A stretch of DNA of 64,000 bases from an uncultured bacterium (GTDB lineage: Bacteria; Krumholzibacteriota; Krumholzibacteriia; LZORAL124-64-63): positions 1-64,000 of the forward strand of contig CALEMW010000220.1 in assembly GCA_937910695.1 (NCBI GenBank). Direction: 5' to 3'. The position numbers and the translations under genes are program-made. Below are positions 11,376 to 38,336 of this stretch, piece after piece; the first letter of the stretch is position 1; each line of letters opens with the position of its first letter. The notes under the pieces are model-generated. The model saw only the letters and a program-made list of their open reading frames with translations. It was not told the origin of the DNA and searched no databases.

Positions 11376-14108
11376 TCAGTCGGTCACCAGCGGAAAATCG
11401 TTGGTGGCCGCAGAGGACCACTTGTGTGCCGTCAGGGCATCGTGGAACAGGGCGTTGCTGCCGAACTTCAGGCTATAGGCGTCATAACCCAGCATGTTCA
11501 GATACGCGGTGATCTGGCTGCTATGCTGGCCAGTCCAGCAATAGATGACCACAGGCATATCTGTGGGTATGTGAACCAGCATTTCCTCGACACCCATGCT
11601 GGCGTAAGGCGTGTACTGGAATGCACCAGGAATGTGGCCCGGGACACCGCTGGTGCCGGCTCCCTCATAGTCGGCCTCGCCAAAGTAGTTGATCACGAAG
11701 TAGTTTTCGAGACCGTTGGTGACCATGTCGGCGTAATTGATGCCCTTGAATCCACCTGTCAACATCGCGGCGACGCGATCAGCCACCGTACCGCTCAGCT
11801 CAGGGAAGGTGTAATAAGCAAGATCGCCGTTGTTGTTATCCGTTTCAGCTACGGCCAGCGCATTGCCGATCCCGCCGTCCCAGGATCCCCTGAGGGTGCT
11901 GTTCCAACTCGCCATTCCGAATAGCAGCGACTGCACGTTCTCGTAGCCAGATAGCTCCAGAGCGATCTTGGCATGACCCGCAGACTGACCTGTGTAGCAA
12001 GCCACCACGATATTGTCGCTCGTGGTCGCATTAGCCGCGACATCAACCAACAGAGTCGAGAGCGTCGTGTTGATGGCCCCTTGGATGTGACCGGCTGCAA
12101 AAACGGTAGAGGACCGCAGATCGAAGATCTTGTAATTGGTCGCCCCGTTCGTGTTCAACGTCGCCGCTGAGATCACTCCCGGGCAATCAGCACTGTCGTT
12201 CACGTAATCAGAGCCCGCGGCCGCCATCGCCGAGAAGTCGGCATTGGGGGCCAGACCGTACTCCATGTCGAATTCATTAACGGCCGCATCGCCCCACTTA
12301 TGAGCCGTCAGATCGGTGTGGAACAGGGCATTGCTTCCGAACTTCAGACTGTAGGCCTCATAACCCAGCATGTTCAGGTATGCGGTGACCTGGCTGCTGT
12401 GCTGGCCGGTCCAGCAGTAGACGACCACAGGCATATCCGTCGGTACGTGCGGCAGCATCTGTTCGATGCCCATGCTCTCGTAGGGTGTGAATTGGAAGGC
12501 ACCCGGAATGTGGCCAGGAACGCCGCTTGTGCCGACGCCTACATAATCAGCCTCGCCGAAGTAGTTAATGATGAAGTAGTTCTCGAGACCGTTGAGAGAC
12601 ATGTCGGTATAACTGATGCCCTTGAACCCACCAGCCAACATCGACGCTACCTGCTCGTCCACGGAGCCAACCAATTCTGGGAAGACATAACCGCCGAGAT
12701 CAGCATTGTTGTTCATCGTCTCAGCGAGAGGCAGCGCGTTGCCGACGCCGCCATCCCACGAGCCGCGCAGGACGCTGTTCCAGCTCGACATGCCGAAGAG
12801 CAGCGACTGCACGTTCTCATAGCCCGAGAGCTCCAGTGCGATTTTGGCGTGGCCCGCGGACTGGCCCGTATAACAAGCCACCACAATGTTGTCGGACATC
12901 GAGGCGTTCGCCGCCACATCAACCAGAATGCTCCCCAGGCTGGAATGGATCGCCCCGGGGATATGCCCATTGATGTAGGTCTGCTCGCTGCGGATGTCGA
13001 AGATCTTGTAGTTCTCCACACCGTTGGCGTGCAGGGTCGCCGCCGAGATCACGCCCGGGCAATCGGCGCTATCGTTCACGTACGCAGCACCGGCGGTGGC
13101 CATGGCCGCGAAATCCGCATTCGCGGGCAGTCCATAGTCCATGTCGAATTCGTTGATGGCCGCTGCTGACCATTTGTGAGCCGTCAGGTTGTCATGGAAC
13201 AGGGCGTTGCTGCCGAACTTCAGGCTGTAGGCCTCATAGCCCAGCATGTTCAGGTACGCGGTGATCTGGCTGCTGTGCTGACCAGTCCAGCAGTAGACGA
13301 CGATGGGCATGTCCGTCGGCAGGTTCCCAAGCATCTGGTCGACGCCCATGCTTGCGTACGGAGTGAACTGGAACGCTCCCGGGATATGGCCGGGCACGCC
13401 GCTGGTGCCGGCGCCCAGGTAGTCGGCCTCTCCAAAATAGTTGACGATGAAGTAGTTCTCGAGGCCGTTGGCCAGCATGTCCGTGTAGGCGATACCCTTG
13501 AAACCTCCGGCCAGCATGGCCGCCACGCGGTCGGCCACGACGGTCGCAACATCATCGCTGAGGGTCGGCACGGTGTGAGTCGTCAGCGAGGCGTTGTTGT
13601 TGGTCGTTTCGGCGCCGGCGCCAAGGGCGTTGCCGATCCCGCCGTTCCAGCTACCGCTCGTGGCGGTGCACCAGCTCGACATGCCGAAGAGCAACGACTT
13701 CACGTTCTCATAGCCCATGAGTTCAAGAGCGACCTTGGCGTGGCCGGCCGACTGGCCGCTGTAGCAGGCCACCACGATGTTCGCATCCATCGGCAGTGCC
13801 TTGGCCGCCACGTCCGACAGGATGGTGCCCAGGCCGGCATGGATCGCACCAGGGATATGCCCGTCCAGGTAGGCCTGCTCGCTGCGGATATCGAAGATCG
13901 TATAGTTCTCGAGGCCGTTAGCGACCAGGTCGGCCGCGGAGATCACACCGGGGCAGTCGATGCTGTCATTGATATAGGCTGCACCAGCTTCTACCATCAT
14001 TTCATAGGCGGTCTGGGTCGGTGTTACGGGACTATCATCGTCGGAACAACCCCACATGGCGGCCATGGCGACCAGCACCACTGCCAACCAGCTCCTACGT
14101 TTCATCAT
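11376..14108 (-). CDS. Lipoprotein with six tandem rhodanese-like domains
   Basis: The 910-residue protein has a lipoprotein signal ending in the lipobox MWGC (Cys21). The rest is three copies of a unit of about 293 residues; the DNA repeats with an 879-base period. Each unit holds two different rhodanese domains: one with FDIRSE, GHIPGAIH and the loop CYSGQSAGH or CYTGQSAGH, the other with GHIPGAF and the loop CWTGQHSSQ. All six loops keep the catalytic Cys, so persulfide or sulfur-relay chemistry, or a redox role, at the cell envelope is plausible. It is the last gene of the cytochrome island. From memory, rhodanese-like lipoproteins also occur in the Geobacter extHIJKL cluster. GGAG lies six bases before the start. 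Confidence 0.93.
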   Translation of the reverse strand: MMKRRSWLAVVLVAMAAMWGCSDDDSPVTPTQTAYEMMVEAGAAYINDSIDCPGVISAADLVANGLENYTIFDIRSEQAYLDGHIPGAIHAGLGTILSDVAAKALPMDANIVVACYSGQSAGHAKVALELMGYENVKSLLFGMSSWCTATSGSWNGGIGNALGAGAETTNNNASLTTHTVPTLSDDVATVVADRVAAMLAGGFKGIAYTDMLANGLENYFIVNYFGEADYLGAGTSGVPGHIPGAFQFTPYASMGVDQMLGNLPTDMPIVVYCWTGQHSSQITAYLNMLGYEAYSLKFGSNALFHDNLTAHKWSAAAINEFDMDYGLPANADFAAMATAGAAYVNDSADCPGVISAATLHANGVENYKIFDIRSEQTYINGHIPGAIHSSLGSILVDVAANASMSDNIVVACYTGQSAGHAKIALELSGYENVQSLLFGMSSWNSVLRGSWDGGVGNALPLAETMNNNADLGGYVFPELVGSVDEQVASMLAGGFKGISYTDMSLNGLENYFIINYFGEADYVGVGTSGVPGHIPGAFQFTPYESMGIEQMLPHVPTDMPVVVYCWTGQHSSQVTAYLNMLGYEAYSLKFGSNALFHTDLTAHKWGDAAVNEFDMEYGLAPNADFSAMAAAGSDYVNDSADCPGVISAATLNTNGATNYKIFDLRSSTVFAAGHIQGAINTTLSTLLVDVAANATTSDNIVVACYTGQSAGHAKIALELSGYENVQSLLFGMASWNSTLRGSWDGGIGNALAVAETDNNNGDLAYYTFPELSGTVADRVAAMLTGGFKGINYADMVTNGLENYFVINYFGEADYEGAGTSGVPGHIPGAFQYTPYASMGVEEMLVHIPTDMPVVIYCWTGQHSSQITAYLNMLGYDAYSLKFGSNALFHDALTAHKWSSAATNDFPLVTD

Positions 14109-16451: not shown

Positions 16452-18284
16452 TCAGAACCGAGCCGACACCGAAACCGCATACAAATCGAGGATGTAATCA
16501 TCCCAGCGGTTCTCATCGAACTCGTACTTGCGGTACAGGCCGGTGATGGTCATCCGCTCGTTCATCACATAACTCGCCTGGGCGAACCAGCGATCGTAGT
16601 CGTTGGACACGGAGTCGGTATTGCGCACAGCTTCCCAGTGGCCTTCCAGTCGCCACTTGTCGCCGAAGCTCATCAACATGCCCGGAGCAAAGCGCATGGT
16701 CGTAGTGTCGTAGGTCACTTCGGCTGTTCCGGTGGCGGGCGTTACGCCGTCGGGCAGATCATAGACTTCGTGGCCGAAGGACACGTTGCCCAGCAACGTT
16801 ACGTTGTCCGTGGCCAGCCACGACATGGTCGCATAGCCGCGGTCGGCATCGAAGGTGTTCTCCACGCCCGTGATGTCCGTGCGCTCGAAGGTCTGGCGGA
16901 TCGTCTGCCCGCCCAGATCCAACCTCAGGCCGGCACGCGGCGCATAATTCACGGCCAACGCAGCCTTCATGCGGTCGCGCTTGCGGTCGCCCTGCCAGTA
17001 GCGAAGGTCGCCCGTCTCGGCCTGCACGATCTCCAGCTTGCTCGAACGGATGTCGGCCTTGGCCGAGAACTTCGCCGAGAACCGCCGGCTCGCCTTGAAC
17101 GAAAGGGTCGTGGTCGTGCGTTCCTGGTCAGTCACCTGAGCCGGATCCAGCGTGCCGCCGGCTTCGACCAAGGTCTCCAACAGGTCGCTCTTGTCGTGGC
17201 GGAAGCCCACAATCACACGAGTGCGGGCCGGGGCGGTCCACCTGAGGTCTGCGCGCAGCCCGGTACGGGTGCGCTCGCGGTCGAGGCTTTCGACCTCTCC
17301 TGCGTCGGGGGTCGCGCCGTCGGTTTCGACTTTCTGGACGCGCGCGCTCACGGTAAGGCCGAGGCTCGGCGAGGGGCGCCACATGGCGGCAGCCGTGCCG
17401 GCCTTCGAAGTCTGTTCGAGGTCGACGTGCTCCTCGGCCGACACTCCTTCGGCAGGAGTCACGTCGAGCTTCGCGGCGGAAAACCGTCCGAGCAGAGCCA
17501 GGCCGTCGCCGTTCCAGGCCACACCACCGTTGACCACCGTCGAAACACGGTCATCGCTATAGGCGTGTTGACCGCGCAGCAGACGTGAACCGTCGTCCTT
17601 GCCCAACGTCAGGCCGAGGTCTCCGTGCAGACCACCGGCGCGCCAGTCGGCGCCCACGGTGCCCCGCACCGATTTGGTCTCGAACTCCTTCACGCCCGGC
17701 GCCGCCAAGCCCCTTGCGGTACGGGCCAGACTGCCCTTCTCTCCGGATCGGCGGATCTCGTCGATGCTCGCAAAAAGGGTGAGCTGACCATTCAGGCGAT
17801 AGCGGGTGTCCATGCTGCCGCGGGCCCAGCGCAGGTCGGGCCGAAAAGCAAGGTACTCGGGGGCGGTCTCCATGGGATAACGCAGTTCGCTCGTACCGTC
17901 GTAGTAATGGTTGAAGCTCTTGTAGGATGCTCCGTAGGTGAATACCCCAGGAGCGCCGCCGTCGAGGTCGAAGGCACCCGCCCCGCCGTTCTCGCCGCGG
18001 TTGTTGCCCGCGCCACGCATCGTGAGCCAGCGGCCGCTGTCCCAGACACGGTTCCAGGCGAAGACGCCAGCGAAGGCATGCTCGTCGAACAGACCCCAAT
18101 CTTCCGCTGATTTTCCCTCGTAACCATAAGCGTCCAAGGTCTCTACAGTTGCGGTCCAGTGGTTGAAAAGGCCTACCTGGTCGCCCGGCTCCGCCCAGGG
18201 ACGTGCCGTATCGCCGGCCGTCGCCGCTGTGGCACCCAGCACCACTGCGAGGATCAGGAGGCCGTATGTCTTTGCGTTCCTCAT
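16452..18284 (-). CDS. Outer-membrane beta-barrel, MtrB/PioB-like porin partner of decaheme cytochrome
   Basis: The 610-residue protein has a signal peptide (YGLLILAVVLGATAATAG), then many alternating amphipathic strands, and ends in VSVSARF, a C-terminal Phe as recognised by the BAM machinery. Length, strand density and position directly after a decaheme cytochrome gene fit the barrel of porin-cytochrome electron conduits, in which the barrel sheathes an MtrA-type cytochrome across the outer membrane. The N-terminal CxxC of Shewanella MtrB is absent. ATG 18284 was chosen because AGGAGG lies eight bases upstream; that ribosome site overlaps the stop of the cytochrome gene, implying coupled translation. 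Assignment rests on features and context, not on alignment. Confidence 0.82.
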   Translation of the reverse strand: MRNAKTYGLLILAVVLGATAATAGDTARPWAEPGDQVGLFNHWTATVETLDAYGYEGKSAEDWGLFDEHAFAGVFAWNRVWDSGRWLTMRGAGNNRGENGGAGAFDLDGGAPGVFTYGASYKSFNHYYDGTSELRYPMETAPEYLAFRPDLRWARGSMDTRYRLNGQLTLFASIDEIRRSGEKGSLARTARGLAAPGVKEFETKSVRGTVGADWRAGGLHGDLGLTLGKDDGSRLLRGQHAYSDDRVSTVVNGGVAWNGDGLALLGRFSAAKLDVTPAEGVSAEEHVDLEQTSKAGTAAAMWRPSPSLGLTVSARVQKVETDGATPDAGEVESLDRERTRTGLRADLRWTAPARTRVIVGFRHDKSDLLETLVEAGGTLDPAQVTDQERTTTTLSFKASRRFSAKFSAKADIRSSKLEIVQAETGDLRYWQGDRKRDRMKAALAVNYAPRAGLRLDLGGQTIRQTFERTDITGVENTFDADRGYATMSWLATDNVTLLGNVSFGHEVYDLPDGVTPATGTAEVTYDTTTMRFAPGMLMSFGDKWRLEGHWEAVRNTDSVSNDYDRWFAQASYVMNERMTITGLYRKYEFDENRWDDYILDLYAVSVSARF

Positions 18285-18296
18285 CGTCGGCACCTC

Positions 18297-19211
18297 CTAG
18301 CGGTCCTGGAAGTTGGGGTCGAGGTTCGAGCCGTGGATCTCATGATGGCAGTCGTAACAGCGGGACTCCTGAGCCAACATGGCGCCGTGAGGCACGTCGC
18401 CGATGGTCGGAAAGCCCGGCTCGTAGTGGCACTGCAGACAGAGCCCGTTGGCGTCCTGCACCAGCAGCTTGTCGTTGATCGAGCCATGGGGCATGTGGCA
18501 GGCCGTGCAGCCATCACCCGCGACGCCCTCGTGTTCGAAGACGAAGGGGCCGGCCATTTCAGTATGACAGCGGAAACAAGCCTGATCGGCGCCAGCAATG
18601 CCGTAGGACGCCTCGAGTTCGCCGTGGGGCGAATGACAGTCGGTGCAGCCGATCTCGCCCTCGAGCACGCGGTGCCGGTAAGGCATGCGGAAATCGGCCG
18701 TGCGGTCCTGGTGGCACTGCAGGCAGAACTCGCCCTGCACCCGGAAGTCCGCAGCAGGACGCACATCGCTCACCGCATGCACAACGTCGGTGTGGCAGGT
18801 GAAGCAGTCCAAATCAGCGTCGGCGTGGGGCCCTGCATGCCAGGTGTCGCCCTTGGGCGTGTGGCACTGGGTGCACATGGTGCGGCGCGCGGCGGCGTCG
18901 AGACCGGCCAGCAGGGACGGGCCCGCGATGGGACCATCGCCGTCACCGGCCACGTGCAGGCTGCCGGGACCGTGACAGGCCTCGCAGGACGCCACATCGG
19001 TGCCTGGAACCGTAAAGCCGCGTTCGACTGCGTGGGGCGTGTGCCGGAAGAAGTCCGCGACGTCGTCGTGGCAATCCAGGCAGGTGGCGGAGCCCACATA
19101 GGAGGCTCCTTCGAGGGTCGGGAACTCGGCCGCATAGCCACCGGCAGACATCGCCAGCACGGGCCAGGCGAGCACCAGAAGTCCACAGGCCAAGACGTTG
19201 CGTCGCGTCAT
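18297..19211 (-). CDS. Decaheme c-type cytochrome, DmsE/MtrA-like
   Basis: The 304-residue exported protein has a signal peptide (LACGLLVLAWPVLAMSAGG) and exactly ten CxxCH heme sites (CLDCH, CEACH, CTQCH, CFTCH, CLQCH, CTDCH, CFRCH, CTACH, CLQCH, CYDCH), with many CH...HG pairs that could supply distal His ligands. Size and heme number match the DmsE/MtrA family, which moves electrons between the periplasm and the outside inside a barrel. GGAGG precedes ATG 19211. It is the first gene of a two-gene operon with the MtrB-like barrel. The direction of electron flow (metal or oxidant respiration versus oxidation) cannot be told. Confidence 0.93.
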   Translation of the reverse strand: MTRRNVLACGLLVLAWPVLAMSAGGYAAEFPTLEGASYVGSATCLDCHDDVADFFRHTPHAVERGFTVPGTDVASCEACHGPGSLHVAGDGDGPIAGPSLLAGLDAAARRTMCTQCHTPKGDTWHAGPHADADLDCFTCHTDVVHAVSDVRPAADFRVQGEFCLQCHQDRTADFRMPYRHRVLEGEIGCTDCHSPHGELEASYGIAGADQACFRCHTEMAGPFVFEHEGVAGDGCTACHMPHGSINDKLLVQDANGLCLQCHYEPGFPTIGDVPHGAMLAQESRCYDCHHEIHGSNLDPNFQDR

Positions 19212-36190: not shown

Positions 36191-36979
36191 TCAACCCCCG
36201 CCGCCGGAGTGGGTGTCCGAGATCCCGAAGTCGATGAGCTCCATCGTCTCGATTCGCAGACGAGGAGGAGGTTGGCGACGACGCCCGGGCGGGTCGAGTT
36301 CCGATCTGGTCTCTCCCCTCTCACTCGCGTACACCACGCCGAGAAAAGGAACACTGTCATGGAGGGTCACACTCACGGTCCGTGTATGGACCTGCAGCAG
36401 CACGCCCTTCGGCAGTTCGATGCGCGTCGAGTCGCAGGCCGATAGATTCAATCCCGAACACAGGAGATCCCGACCTGCCACGACACGCGTCGTATCGCCG
36501 GACCGTTCGCGGGAGTCAGGATTGAAGCCGTCACCGAGCGTGACGCTCAACAGAGGATCTTCCCGCCACTCGCGGTCGGCAATGGATCGGCGCTCTCCCT
36601 CCTCCACACGCTCGACGTCATGGACATGATCGATGAATCGAGCGCCTCCGGCACCGTCACGATCCAGAGTGAAGCTCCAGGAACCCTCCGCAACGTCTTC
36701 GAGGAATCCGTCCAGGTCGATCACCGGCGACACGCTCAGGCGCCAGCCGTGATCGTCCGCATGTTCGCAACGTACACGGACGATGTCCTCGGATCGCCGA
36801 CCTGCATCCATGGTCACCATACGGTAGAGGACCCAGTCCCCGGCCGAGACATCGAGTGTGATCTCGGGATCGTTCCAGAATGTGAAGAGGTCGAGAGCTG
36901 CCGCACCGAGCGGAACTAGCATCATCAACACGAACCCGATCACCGCGACGGCCGGACTCATCGGAGTCCGGCCGTTCAT
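36191..36979 (-). CDS. Secreted protein of unknown function
   Basis: The 262-residue protein, from ATG 36979 or from the Met at 36961, has a signal-like segment (AVAVIGFVLMMLVPLGAAA). The mature part has many short strands and two cysteines (LLCSGLNLSACDSTRI). It ends in a Gly-rich tail. The start follows the stop of the Sec-containing phosphatase-cytochrome gene by about 20 bases, so the two may be one operon. No domain was recognised. No good ribosome site was seen at either Met, so the start is uncertain. Confidence 0.65.
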   Translation of the reverse strand: MNGRTPMSPAVAVIGFVLMMLVPLGAAALDLFTFWNDPEITLDVSAGDWVLYRMVTMDAGRRSEDIVRVRCEHADDHGWRLSVSPVIDLDGFLEDVAEGSWSFTLDRDGAGGARFIDHVHDVERVEEGERRSIADREWREDPLLSVTLGDGFNPDSRERSGDTTRVVAGRDLLCSGLNLSACDSTRIELPKGVLLQVHTRTVSVTLHDSVPFLGVVYASERGETRSELDPPGRRRQPPPRLRIETMELIDFGISDTHSGGGG

Positions 36980-36998: not shown

Positions 36999-38336
36999 TC
37001 AATGCGCAATCTTGGCCCAGTAGGCGTCATAGTCGAACTCCGGACTGTTTTCCTGATCGTGACAAGACACGCAGCTCGCACGTGCCTGGGCCAACCAGCT
37101 GCCGTCACGGCTGTGTTCAGTGCCGTATCCGTGGCAGGCCTCGCACTGGACGTTGGTCAGGCGGTTCCGGGGCGGTTGGTCGTCGTATCCGTTCATATAG
37201 AGGTAGCCTGTCGTGTGACAGACCAAACACTCGGGACTCTGAGCCTGCCCCTTGCGAGCCAAGGTCGTAAAAGCGACCTGATGTGTCGATTCGCGCAGGG
37301 CCTCCCAGACATCCGTATGACACTTGCGGCACTCACGCTCGGTCAGGAAGCTCTCCTTGTCCGAGCCCTTGGTCGGCTGATAGGGACCACGGGCTACGAG
37401 ACGGAATTCTTCGAGGTGCTCTTTGAATTTATTGACCCGATCGAGCATGATCGGATCGTCGGCGATCTCCTCGCCCAATTCAAGAATGGTCACGTCGAAA
37501 GCCTTAAGGTCGCCCGATACGCCGAGGTCGACGTCCATTCGGCCGAGATAACGGCCCTCGAACGACGATGAGATCAGAGACGTTCTGTCGACGAGCCTCT
37601 CGCTCCGGAAGGGGCGGCGGCTGTGCCCCACGAGGCATACGTCCACACCCGTCACGTCATTGAGCAACTGTTCGGCTTTCTGGTCGCCGAGGTGGGCGAT
37701 CACCACGACGGTCTGAGCCCCCGCCGCACGCATGCGCGGCAGCAGATCCCGCAGTACCGACAGGGGTTCATCGACTGTGTATTCTTCGTCCTGGGCGCTC
37801 ATCGTGAGAATCCGCTGCTCGGCATCGAGGACGGAGCATACGCCGATCTTGAAGCCGGCGCGCTCGACCATCAGAAACTCGGGAAGAATGAGTTCGCCGG
37901 AGCCGTCGCGCACGTTGGCGCTTGTGTAAGGCAGACCGTATTGCTCGATCATCTCCCGCAGGAAGTCGATACCGTAGTTCAGGTCCATCTCGCCGAGACC
38001 GATGGCGTCGTAGCCGAACTCGCTGTGCACCTCACAGAGGAAGCGTGTCTGCTCCCGCTCGATGCGGGTGCGCTGGCCGAACATGTCGCCGGCATCGAGC
38101 ATGAGCACGGGCTTGCCAGTGTTCCAGATCTCGTCGAGCCGAAGTGCGCGTCGGGACAGACCGCCCCGTCGATTGCTCTTTCAGCCACAGGGTTCAACTT
38201 TACCGCCGATGTCTCCCGTGTAGACCATCACCAACGGGGTCCAGGGGCCGTCTTTGGCCGCCGGCGTCTGGCCGATCACCGGCACGACGAGCAGCAACAA
38301 GGCGATCAACACGCAGAGGTTCACAATTCCTCGCAT
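36999..38336 (-). CDS. Metallophosphatase-like/tetraheme cytochrome fusion with in-frame UGA (putative selenocysteine)
   Basis: Read through the TGA at 38183-38181, this is 445 residues with Sec52. ATG 38336 has GGAG eight bases upstream and begins a signal peptide (VNLCVLIALLLLVVPVIG). Before the TGA lies VYTGDIGGKVEPCG, after it KSNRRGGLSRRALRLDEI and LMLDAGDMFG, as in 5'-nucleotidase-like metallophosphatases. In relatives I recall the motif as EPCGC, so Sec replaces Cys. The usual DxH metal motif here reads D-I-G. After about residue 300 come four heme sites (CRKCH, CLVCH, CEACH, CVSCH), a cytochrome c554-like module. Periplasmic or surface location is expected; the substrate is unknown. 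Confidence 0.85.
38149..38171 (-). promoter_or_regulatory. Bacterial SECIS-like hairpin of the phosphatase UGA
   Basis: After the UGA (base 1 follows it) bases 13-17 CGGGG pair with 25-29 UCCCG, closing loop CGGUCUG; C10-G32 and G11-C31 add a lower stem across an A-A mismatch. The loop begins 18 bases after the UGA, has G at its second base, and contains GGUCU, the loop sequence of the E. coli fdhF SECIS. Confidence 0.75.

What the first reader, a model, noticed from the sequence alone, without database searches (positions are those of the whole stretch)
36999..38336. Metallophosphatase-tetraheme fusion with Sec in the EPCGC motif
The frame before the TGA (38183-38181) ends GKVEPCG and continues KSNRRGGLSRRAL and LMLDAGDMFG. 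In relatives as I recall them the motif is EPCGC, so the TGA sits where Cys is expected. A hairpin with loop CGGUCUG starts in the right place and contains GGUCU, as in fdhF. The protein also carries four c-hemes and lacks the usual His of the DxH metal motif. A redox-coupled hydrolase or a chalcogen-handling enzyme is possible.
Basis: partly seen in the sequence, partly recalled or inferred. Interest (0 to 1): 0.93.

Follow-up and report, generated by a model that had tools for sequence, protein, structure and literature searches.

The report
Selenocysteine protein wired to four hemes
The gene is real and its internal stop codon almost certainly codes for selenocysteine, but this protein family is already catalogued; what the comparison adds is evidence that the selenium residue, not the old phosphatase metal site, is the part evolution keeps.

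Summary
On the minus strand, 38336-36999 is one frame of 445 residues with a TGA at codon 52 (38183-38181), in EPCG-U-KSNRRGGLSRR, ahead of four CxxCH motifs. The host genome has SelA, SelB, SelD and tRNA-Sec. Among 85 dereplicated family members, the window included, 68 have TGA and 17 a Cys codon at this column, none anything else. In the Sec members two pairs of the downstream hairpin form far more often than synonymous codons predict; in the Cys members they do not.

Fusion and Sec are not new. Both halves match NCBIfam NF041198 'UshA-like (seleno)protein' (E 5.6e-78; 262.8 bits, below the 275 naming cut-off), listed as CxU in papers of 2008, 2022 and 2026. I saw no tested function.

Added here: the phosphatase GNH motif is gone (Asn 0 of 85, His 1 of 85), other metal ligands were lost repeatedly, and Cys50 was lost in one Sec clade, while residue 52 stays Sec or Cys. 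One copy in a second set has neither. I propose an exported Sec-based oxidoreductase, possibly for sulfur compounds; the substrate is unknown.

The parts
36999..38336 (-). Selenoprotein gene, 445 residues plus stop, Sec at residue 52
   Evidence: Sequence and translation with TGA=U; family match
38181..38183 (-). In-frame TGA, Sec52
   Evidence: TGA at the same column in 68 of 85 dereplicated members, Cys codon in 17
38152..38168 (-). SECIS-like hairpin, loop GGUCU at 38158-38162, starting 13 nt after the TGA
   Evidence: Fold; two pairs formed above synonymous-codon expectation in Sec members only
38268..38336 (-). Likely signal peptide, residues 1-23
   Evidence: Read by eye (hydrophobic run after the start); no signal-peptide program was run
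37383..38237 (-). UshA-like (5'-nucleotidase-fold) domain, about residues 34-318
   Evidence: NF041198 positions 3-267; PDB profile match to 5'-nucleotidases; Foldseek
37002..37346 (-). Cytochrome c554-like tetraheme domain, about residues 331-445
   Evidence: Pfam PF13435 43.5 bits, cut-off 20.8; cytochrome c-554 1.3e-19; NF041198 348-518
37317..37331 (-). Heme motif 1 (CRKCH)
   Evidence: Sequence; conservation
37215..37229 (-). Heme motif 2 (CLVCH)
   Evidence: Sequence; conservation
37131..37145 (-). Heme motif 3 (CEACH)
   Evidence: Sequence; conservation, partly by construction because searched for VQCEACHG
37059..37073 (-). Heme motif 4 (CVSCH)
   Evidence: Sequence; conservation
36194..36961 (-). 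Downstream gene for a probably secreted protein of unknown family, possible partner
   Evidence: A homologue lies downstream on the same strand within 400 bases (first or second gene) in 26 of the 80 loci L121-L200; no Pfam or NCBIfam hit; weak LolA/LolB-like fold match

Best explanation
The gene encodes an exported selenoprotein of the UshA-like (seleno)protein kind (NCBIfam NF041198). Strongly supported by sequence: UGA 52 is decoded as Sec by the host's SelB/tRNA-Sec system, helped by the hairpin just after it; the N-terminal half has a 5'-nucleotidase fold without the GNH motif; the C-terminal half is a cytochrome c554-like tetraheme module. Inferred: the Sec has replaced the metal centre as the working residue, reacts with a small periplasmic substrate, and passes electrons to or from the four hemes and on to other c-type cytochromes. 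I think an oxidoreductase of a sulfur or other chalcogen compound or a thiol is most likely; the direction of electron flow and the substrate are guesses.
For: Sec: SelB 336.3 bits, SelA 441.7, SelD 358.5 (itself with a TGA) and tRNA-Sec 68.3 bits in the host genome, all over cut-off; SelA over cut-off in 77 of 80 genomes of the phylum against 1 of 14 controls. Column 52 is U in 68 and C in 17 of 85 dereplicated members; in a second set 46 Sec, 2 Cys, 1 neither of 49. SECIS: pair +16/+27 formed in 67 of 68 Sec rows against 40.6 expected from synonymous codons, +18/+25 in 61 of 68 against 41.5; in Cys rows 7 of 17 against 8.6 and 12 of 17 against 8.4. Repurposed active site: residue 52 and G58, G59, N141 invariant (85 of 85), while N116 is 0 of 85, the GNH His 1 of 85, H44 6 of 85; the trio D84/H215/H238 is lost in 36 of 85, with at least nine changes on the tree. 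Cys50 is Ala, Gly or Ser in one Sec clade of 5 rows, one change on the tree, so a C50-U52 bond is not essential there. Electron path: the four CxxCH His and H352, H408 in 76 of 76 rows with four hemes, H445 in 68 of 76. In the second set 9 of 40 loci have a gene with CxxCH motifs among the two nearest on either side. Sulfur hint: CBS-type PLP enzyme directly downstream in L165, L183, L187; Cys/Met PLP enzyme in L184; rhodanese and MauE in L171; CcdA and TlpA-like in L172; DsbA-like in L186, L189.
Against: No substrate or activity has been shown. The window's protein keeps D42, D84, E116, H215 and H238, so it could hold a metal ion. Some members lack the heme half (seven changes on the tree, a count that includes copies cut by contig ends such as L079 and L094); the named set was found by the heme peptide VQCEACHG, so heme conservation is partly built in. 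The sulfur-type neighbours are 12 of the 56 loci L145-L200 by my count (9 checked by Pfam by similarity; two of the 12 loci are from one genome), no background rate was measured, and I saw none beside the window gene. In the second set they are rare: one of 40 by eye, L263, unchecked. Two Sec members of the second set have 7, not 5, residues between Sec and GG (L255, L259), and L213 has neither Sec nor Cys. Loss of the metal trio is not associated with Sec against Cys (Fisher p 0.10; 5 independent pairs, no signal). Hairpin pairs +15/+28 (27 of 68, 32.2 expected) and +14/+29 (31, 31.0 expected) are not above expectation, and the fold energy of Sec against Cys rows, each against synonymous codons, does not differ significantly (p 0.11). 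tRNA-Sec also passes its cut-off in 5 of 14 control genomes, so it is a less specific sign than SelA.
Confidence: 0.6

Rival explanations
1. It is still a metal-dependent hydrolase: Sec52 (or Cys52) serves as a metal ligand or nucleophile beside a metal at the D84/E116/H215/H238 site, and the hemes regulate it or only anchor it.
For: D84, H215 and H238 are kept together in 49 of 85 members and in the window; residue 116 is Glu in 55 of 85, which could bind metal; the fold is that of 5'-nucleotidases, and SoxB also matches.
Against: GNH Asn and His are absent nearly family-wide (0 and 1 of 85); the metal ligands were lost repeatedly while residue 52 stayed.
Confidence: 0.2
2. It is a thiol-disulfide oxidoreductase in which Cys50 and Sec52 form a selenenylsulfide, with a thioredoxin-like partner.
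For: CxU is the motif in print; DsbA-like genes lie beside Cys copies L186 and L189, and CcdA and TlpA-like genes beside the mixed copies of L172.
Against: One Sec clade has Ala, Gly or Ser at position 50; L270 has the Cys at another spacing, CPTU; in most of the loci listed I recognised no such partner among the nearest genes, though only 20 neighbour proteins were scanned.
Confidence: 0.15
3. The TGA is a real stop, or a sequencing error, and the downstream frame is a separate or dead gene.
For: A plain ORF caller gives a 369-residue ORF starting after the TGA; the window hairpin alone is unremarkable.
Against: TGA or a Cys codon at this column in 85 of 85 dereplicated members, conserved protein on both sides of the TGA, sel genes present.
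Confidence: 0.02

Closest known systems
NCBIfam NF041198 UshA_like_PCGU, UshA-like (seleno)protein (COG0737 UshA-like, CxU)
   Same: Both halves matched (profile 3-267 and 348-518), PCGU motif, tetraheme half included in the model
   Different: Window protein scores 262.8 bits, below the naming cut-off of 275; I saw no tested function for the family
NCBIfam NF049981 UshA-like (seleno)protein family 2 (CxxU in print)
   Same: UshA-like; partial match 2.1e-6, 27.4 bits
   Different: Far below its cut-off of 140. Two heme-free copies here read CPTU; the one scanned, L270, matches NF041198 better (221.7 bits) than NF049981 (82.9), both below cut-off
5'-nucleotidases: CD73, UshA
   Same: Fold (Foldseek E 1.1e-22 to CD73) and profile match 1.7e-33 to venom 5'-nucleotidase
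   Different: GNH motif and, in most members, the DxH His missing; Sec loop and heme half added
SoxB thiosulfohydrolase
   Same: Same superfamily: 3.1e-18, 4.9e-20 to 2wdc with the family profile
   Different: 65.4 of 550 bits; no SoxB over cut-off in the host genome; other sox genes were not searched for
Cytochrome c554 (Nitrosomonas)
   Same: Tetraheme half: PF13435 and 1bvb 1.3e-19
   Different: Here fused to an UshA-like domain

Membership tests
Bacterial selenoprotein | In-frame UGA at a column that is Cys in homologues | tested here: met
   68 Sec and 17 Cys of 85 dereplicated members
Bacterial selenoprotein | Sec machinery in the same genome | tested here: met
   SelA, SelB, SelD and tRNA-Sec over cut-off
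Bacterial selenoprotein | SECIS hairpin with G in a small apical loop shortly after UGA | tested here: met
   Hairpin with loop GGUCU, not significant alone; two pairs above synonymous expectation in Sec members; criterion seen in passages of PMC1088965
Bacterial selenoprotein | Selenium in the protein | not testable with these tools
   Needs labelling or mass spectrometry
NF041198 UshA-like (seleno)protein | PCGU motif, UshA-like half, tetraheme half | tested here: met
NF041198 UshA-like (seleno)protein | Score over NCBI's naming cut-off (275 bits) | tested here: not met
   262.8 bits. I treat this as a naming threshold: the window sits inside a 19-row clade (SH-aLRT 100) with L064, L073, L074, L077 and L083, whose copies pass the cut-off; 14 of 80 genomes of the phylum pass it
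Metallophosphoesterase / 5'-nucleotidase (as an enzyme) | Fold | tested here: met
Metallophosphoesterase / 5'-nucleotidase (as an enzyme) | DxH and GNH motifs | tested here: not met
   Window has DIG and GEM; family 6 of 85 with the DxH His, 0 of 85 with the Asn and 1 of 85 with the His of GNH. Roles of the motifs are recalled
SoxB | SoxB profile over cut-off | tested here: not met
   65.4 of 550 bits
Cytochrome c554-type tetraheme domain | Four CxxCH and PF13435 over cut-off | tested here: met

The most novel reading that the evidence does not exclude
A large family of exported enzymes has turned a phosphatase fold into a selenium-based redox enzyme: one Sec (or Cys) residue, able to work without its neighbouring Cys and without the old metal site, exchanges electrons directly with a fused four-heme wire, probably to convert a sulfur or other chalcogen compound.
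Probability: 0.35. Interest if true: 0.7.

Novelty: new member of a known kind. Interest (0 to 1): 0.42.

Why it matters
UshA-like proteins are counted among the twenty major selenoprotein families of an ocean survey (passage of PMC2398784), yet I saw no tested function. The data here narrow the question: test Sec52 and electron exchange with the hemes rather than phosphatase activity. They also name natural variants (without Cys50, without metal ligands, without hemes, with Cys for Sec) that separate the possible mechanisms, and a conserved uncharacterised downstream gene. Because a plain ORF call starts after the TGA, such genes are easily annotated short.

Tried and rejected
Sequencing error or true stop: rejected. 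Rfam search of the window: no match; I recall no Rfam model for bacterial SECIS. Window hairpin on its own: not significant. A phosphatase reading: weakened, not excluded. Idea that metal-site loss goes with Sec: not supported. Idea that Sec-to-GG spacing is fixed: true for 68 of 68 Sec rows of the first set (that script also flagged the Cys row L095, which has an earlier CGC, a parsing slip), but 2 Sec members of the second set have 7. The 80 of 80 genomes matching NF041198 at 1e-20 is not specific, since 7 of 14 control genomes also ring; I rely on the TGA column and on 14 of 80 over the cut-off (controls 0 of 14). SoxB in the host genome: none over cut-off. Operon logic in the second set (40 loci, first family copy and two nearest genes per side): neighbours vary, no common pathway. 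Partner structure (pLDDT 87.2) against PDB: only weak half-barrel hits, TM-scores mostly 0.2 to 0.4. My first guess that the CPTU copies belong to NF049981 was not borne out for L270.

Rows dropped and limits: 140 member places gave 108 distinct sequences and 87 below 75% identity. L110 (motif misread by my script; one search shows PAGU) and L111 (a Cys form, dropped needlessly) were left out of the 85; with them the count would be 69 Sec and 18 Cys of 87. One search counts 86 rows. The tree is a quick search with SH-aLRT support only. The rank sum test (p 4e-7) does not correct for kinship. The second set consists of the best-scoring loci and 40 regions that I picked. In one search the printed tally is offset by the pattern used; I counted from the printed contexts.

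Full report
What is there. On the minus strand of the window, 38336 to 36999 reads as one frame of 445 residues with a TGA at codon 52 and a terminal TGA. The start is followed by a hydrophobic run that looks like a signal peptide (by eye, no program). The TGA stands in GDIGGKVEPCG-TGA-KSNRRGGLSRR. Four CxxCH motifs lie in the last 115 residues. A plain ORF list gives a 369-residue ORF starting after the TGA.

Is the TGA selenocysteine? The genome that holds the window (4.14 Mb, 237 contigs) has SelB (336.3 bits, cut-off 242.25), SelA (441.7, cut-off 267.9), SelD (358.5, cut-off 125, with one TGA inside) and tRNA-Sec (68.3, gathering 47). SelA is over its cut-off in 77 of 80 genomes of the phylum, against 1 of 14 control genomes; tRNA-Sec is less specific (5 of 14 controls over cut-off). 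From the titles of the nearest named records (many but not all say Krumholzibacteriia or Krumholzibacteriota) I infer that the phylum is Krumholzibacteriota. This gave 140 member places, 108 distinct sequences and 87 below 75% identity. Two rows were dropped (L110 misread, L111 needlessly), leaving 85 on the tree, the window among them. Residue 52 is TGA in 68 and a Cys codon in 17; nothing else occurs. The Sec/Cys state changes at least seven times on the tree. A second set was drawn from 297 genomes of the phylum of L195 (a Syntrophaceae record; phylum Desulfobacterota recalled): 99 of 297 genomes match at 1e-40, 58 over the cut-off. Of 49 distinct members read in loci L201-L270, 46 have Sec, 2 Cys and 1 (L213) neither.

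The SECIS. The window hairpin has a GGUCU loop starting 19 nt after the TGA. Alone it is unremarkable (29 of 200 shuffles of the 23-nt piece, 53 of 200 of the 44-nt piece and 156 of 200 of the 61-nt piece fold at least as well). Across the family, I compared base pairing in a fixed register with that of random synonymous codons. In 68 Sec rows the pair +16/+27 forms in 67 (40.6 expected), +18/+25 in 61 (41.5) and +13/+30 in 39 (19.6); +17/+26 is forced by the protein (68, expected 67.6); +15/+28 (27, expected 32.2) and +14/+29 (31, expected 31.0) are not raised. In 17 Cys rows +16/+27 forms in 7 (8.6 expected) and +18/+25 in 12 (8.4). The window itself uses a register shifted by one base. Fold energy against plain shuffles gives mean z -1.34 for Sec rows and +0.10 for Cys rows (not corrected for kinship); against synonymous codons the means are -0.45 and 0.01, Sec rows differ from zero (Wilcoxon p 0.012) but not significantly from Cys rows (p 0.11). 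I take the two pairs at partly silent positions as good evidence for a SECIS.

What the protein is. NCBIfam NF041198 'UshA-like (seleno)protein' is the top hit, 5.6e-78, 262.8 bits against a naming cut-off of 275. Both halves match, profile 3-267 and 348-518, so the known family already includes the fusion. Copies within the same clade pass the cut-off. UshA-like CxU stands in selenoprotein lists: 76 sequences in the 2008 ocean survey as COG0737 (PMC2398784, passages), the 2022 review (PMC9312934, passage) and the 2026 review, which names NF041198 (PMC13188914, passages). Beyond the COG name, those passages give no function and do not mention hemes for this family. Paper searches, seen as listings: no paper; 10 of 75 shown; in none did I see a functional study. 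The 2005 and 2006 surveys PMC1088965 and PMC1794560 do not contain 'UshA' or 'COG0737' (term searches).

The N-terminal half. A model built from 25 aligned sequences is confident (mean pLDDT 85.9, pTM 0.79). Foldseek's best hits are CD73 and other 5'-nucleotidases (E 1.1e-22), and the family profile finds venom 5'-nucleotidase (1.7e-33) and SoxB (4.9e-20) in the PDB. That alignment puts residue 52 in the loop between the first Asp and the GGVARR helix. I recall that DxH, GDxx, GNH[DE] and two further His carry the metals and the catalytic His. Counted on the 85 rows: D42 60, H44 6, D84 56, N116 0 (Glu 55), GNH His 1, H215 58, H238 52; far rows may be misaligned at the last two. The trio D84/H215/H238 is intact in 49 rows and lost in 36, with at least nine changes on the tree. 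Residue 52, G58, G59 and N141 never vary in the 85. The window's protein keeps D42, D84, E116, H215 and H238, so a metal there is possible. Loss of the trio is not linked to Sec or Cys.

Cys50. The literature motif is CxU. One clade of five rows has Ala, Gly or Ser at 50 and still Sec at 52; L110/L156 are of the same type. So an internal selenenylsulfide cannot be the general mechanism. Other variants: CNC and CTC in Cys forms, CAU in two heme-free copies, CPTU in two heme-free copies of the second set, of which L270 scores better with NF041198 than with NF049981, both below cut-off.

The C-terminal half. It matches cytochrome c554 (PF13435; 1bvb). In the 76 rows with four hemes, H352 and H408 are invariant and H445, the last residue here, is His in 68. 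With four CxxCH His and three further His, one heme may lack a conserved distal ligand, as I recall for cytochrome c554. This is inference.

Surroundings. In 26 of the 80 loci L121-L200, as in the window, a gene of one unknown family lies downstream on the same strand within 400 bases; it has no Pfam or NCBIfam match. Its predicted structure is confident (pLDDT 87.2), but PDB hits are weak LolA/LolB-like half-barrels. Upstream in the window lie an HU/IHF-like gene and an LptD-like gene, both below the naming cut-offs, an order seen in related loci too. In other lineages the neighbours suggest sulfur or thiols: CBS-type PLP enzyme (L165, L183, L187), Cys/Met PLP enzyme (L184), rhodanese, MauE and an Fe-S protein (L171; similar genes in L160 and L176), CcdA and a TlpA-like protein with three family copies within about 6 kb (L172), DsbA-like proteins (L186, L189, similar in L166, L196). 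That is 12 of the 56 loci L145-L200 by my count, two of them from one genome. In the 40 loci of the second set I saw one such neighbour by eye (L263, unchecked), and CxxCH-bearing neighbours in 9. No background rate was measured.

Mechanism. Supported by sequence: Sec insertion, 5'-nucleotidase fold without GNH, tetraheme half. Inferred: export, Sec52 as the reacting residue, electron exchange with the hemes, sulfur-type substrate. I put 0.95 on the Sec, about 0.6 on a Sec/heme oxidoreductase and about 0.35 on the boldest form, Sec working alone on a chalcogen compound.

Verdict. A correct observation of a known but uncharacterised selenoprotein family; ordinary as a find, moderately interesting because the comparison makes its function testable.

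Noticed in passing
window 11379-14108 (-): 910-residue protein with several tandem rhodanese domains (three stretches pass against GlpE); by eye the start looks like a lipoprotein signal.
   Followed up: no
window 16458-19211 (-): DmsE-family decaheme cytochrome (207.9 bits, cut-off 192.2) beside a protein with a weak GSU2204-like match (3e-5): possibly an MtrA/MtrB-type outer-membrane electron conduit.
   Followed up: partly
window 36194-36961 (-): Protein family without Pfam or NCBIfam match, downstream of the selenoprotein in 26 of 80 other loci; weak LolA/LolB-like fold.
   Followed up: partly
L172: Three copies of the family within about 6 kb with CGC, CGU and CGC, and CcdA and a TlpA-like gene between them.
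   Followed up: partly
L178, L182: Heme-free copy with PCAU beside a heme copy with PCGU; in L178 a 16-CxxCH protein with a NapC-type domain follows.
   Followed up: partly
L213: Copy with SGR in place of CGU: both Cys50 and Sec52 gone; the same genome (G170) has another copy with TGA.
   Followed up: no
L255, L259: Sec copies with seven instead of five residues between Sec and GG, so the hairpin distance must differ.
   Followed up: no
L270, L263: Heme-free copies reading CPTU; L270 scores 221.7 bits with NF041198 and 82.9 with NF049981, both below cut-off.
   Followed up: partly
L019 (own genome, C232:2992-3912): The host's SelD match contains one TGA, so SelD is itself probably a selenoprotein.
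   Followed up: no
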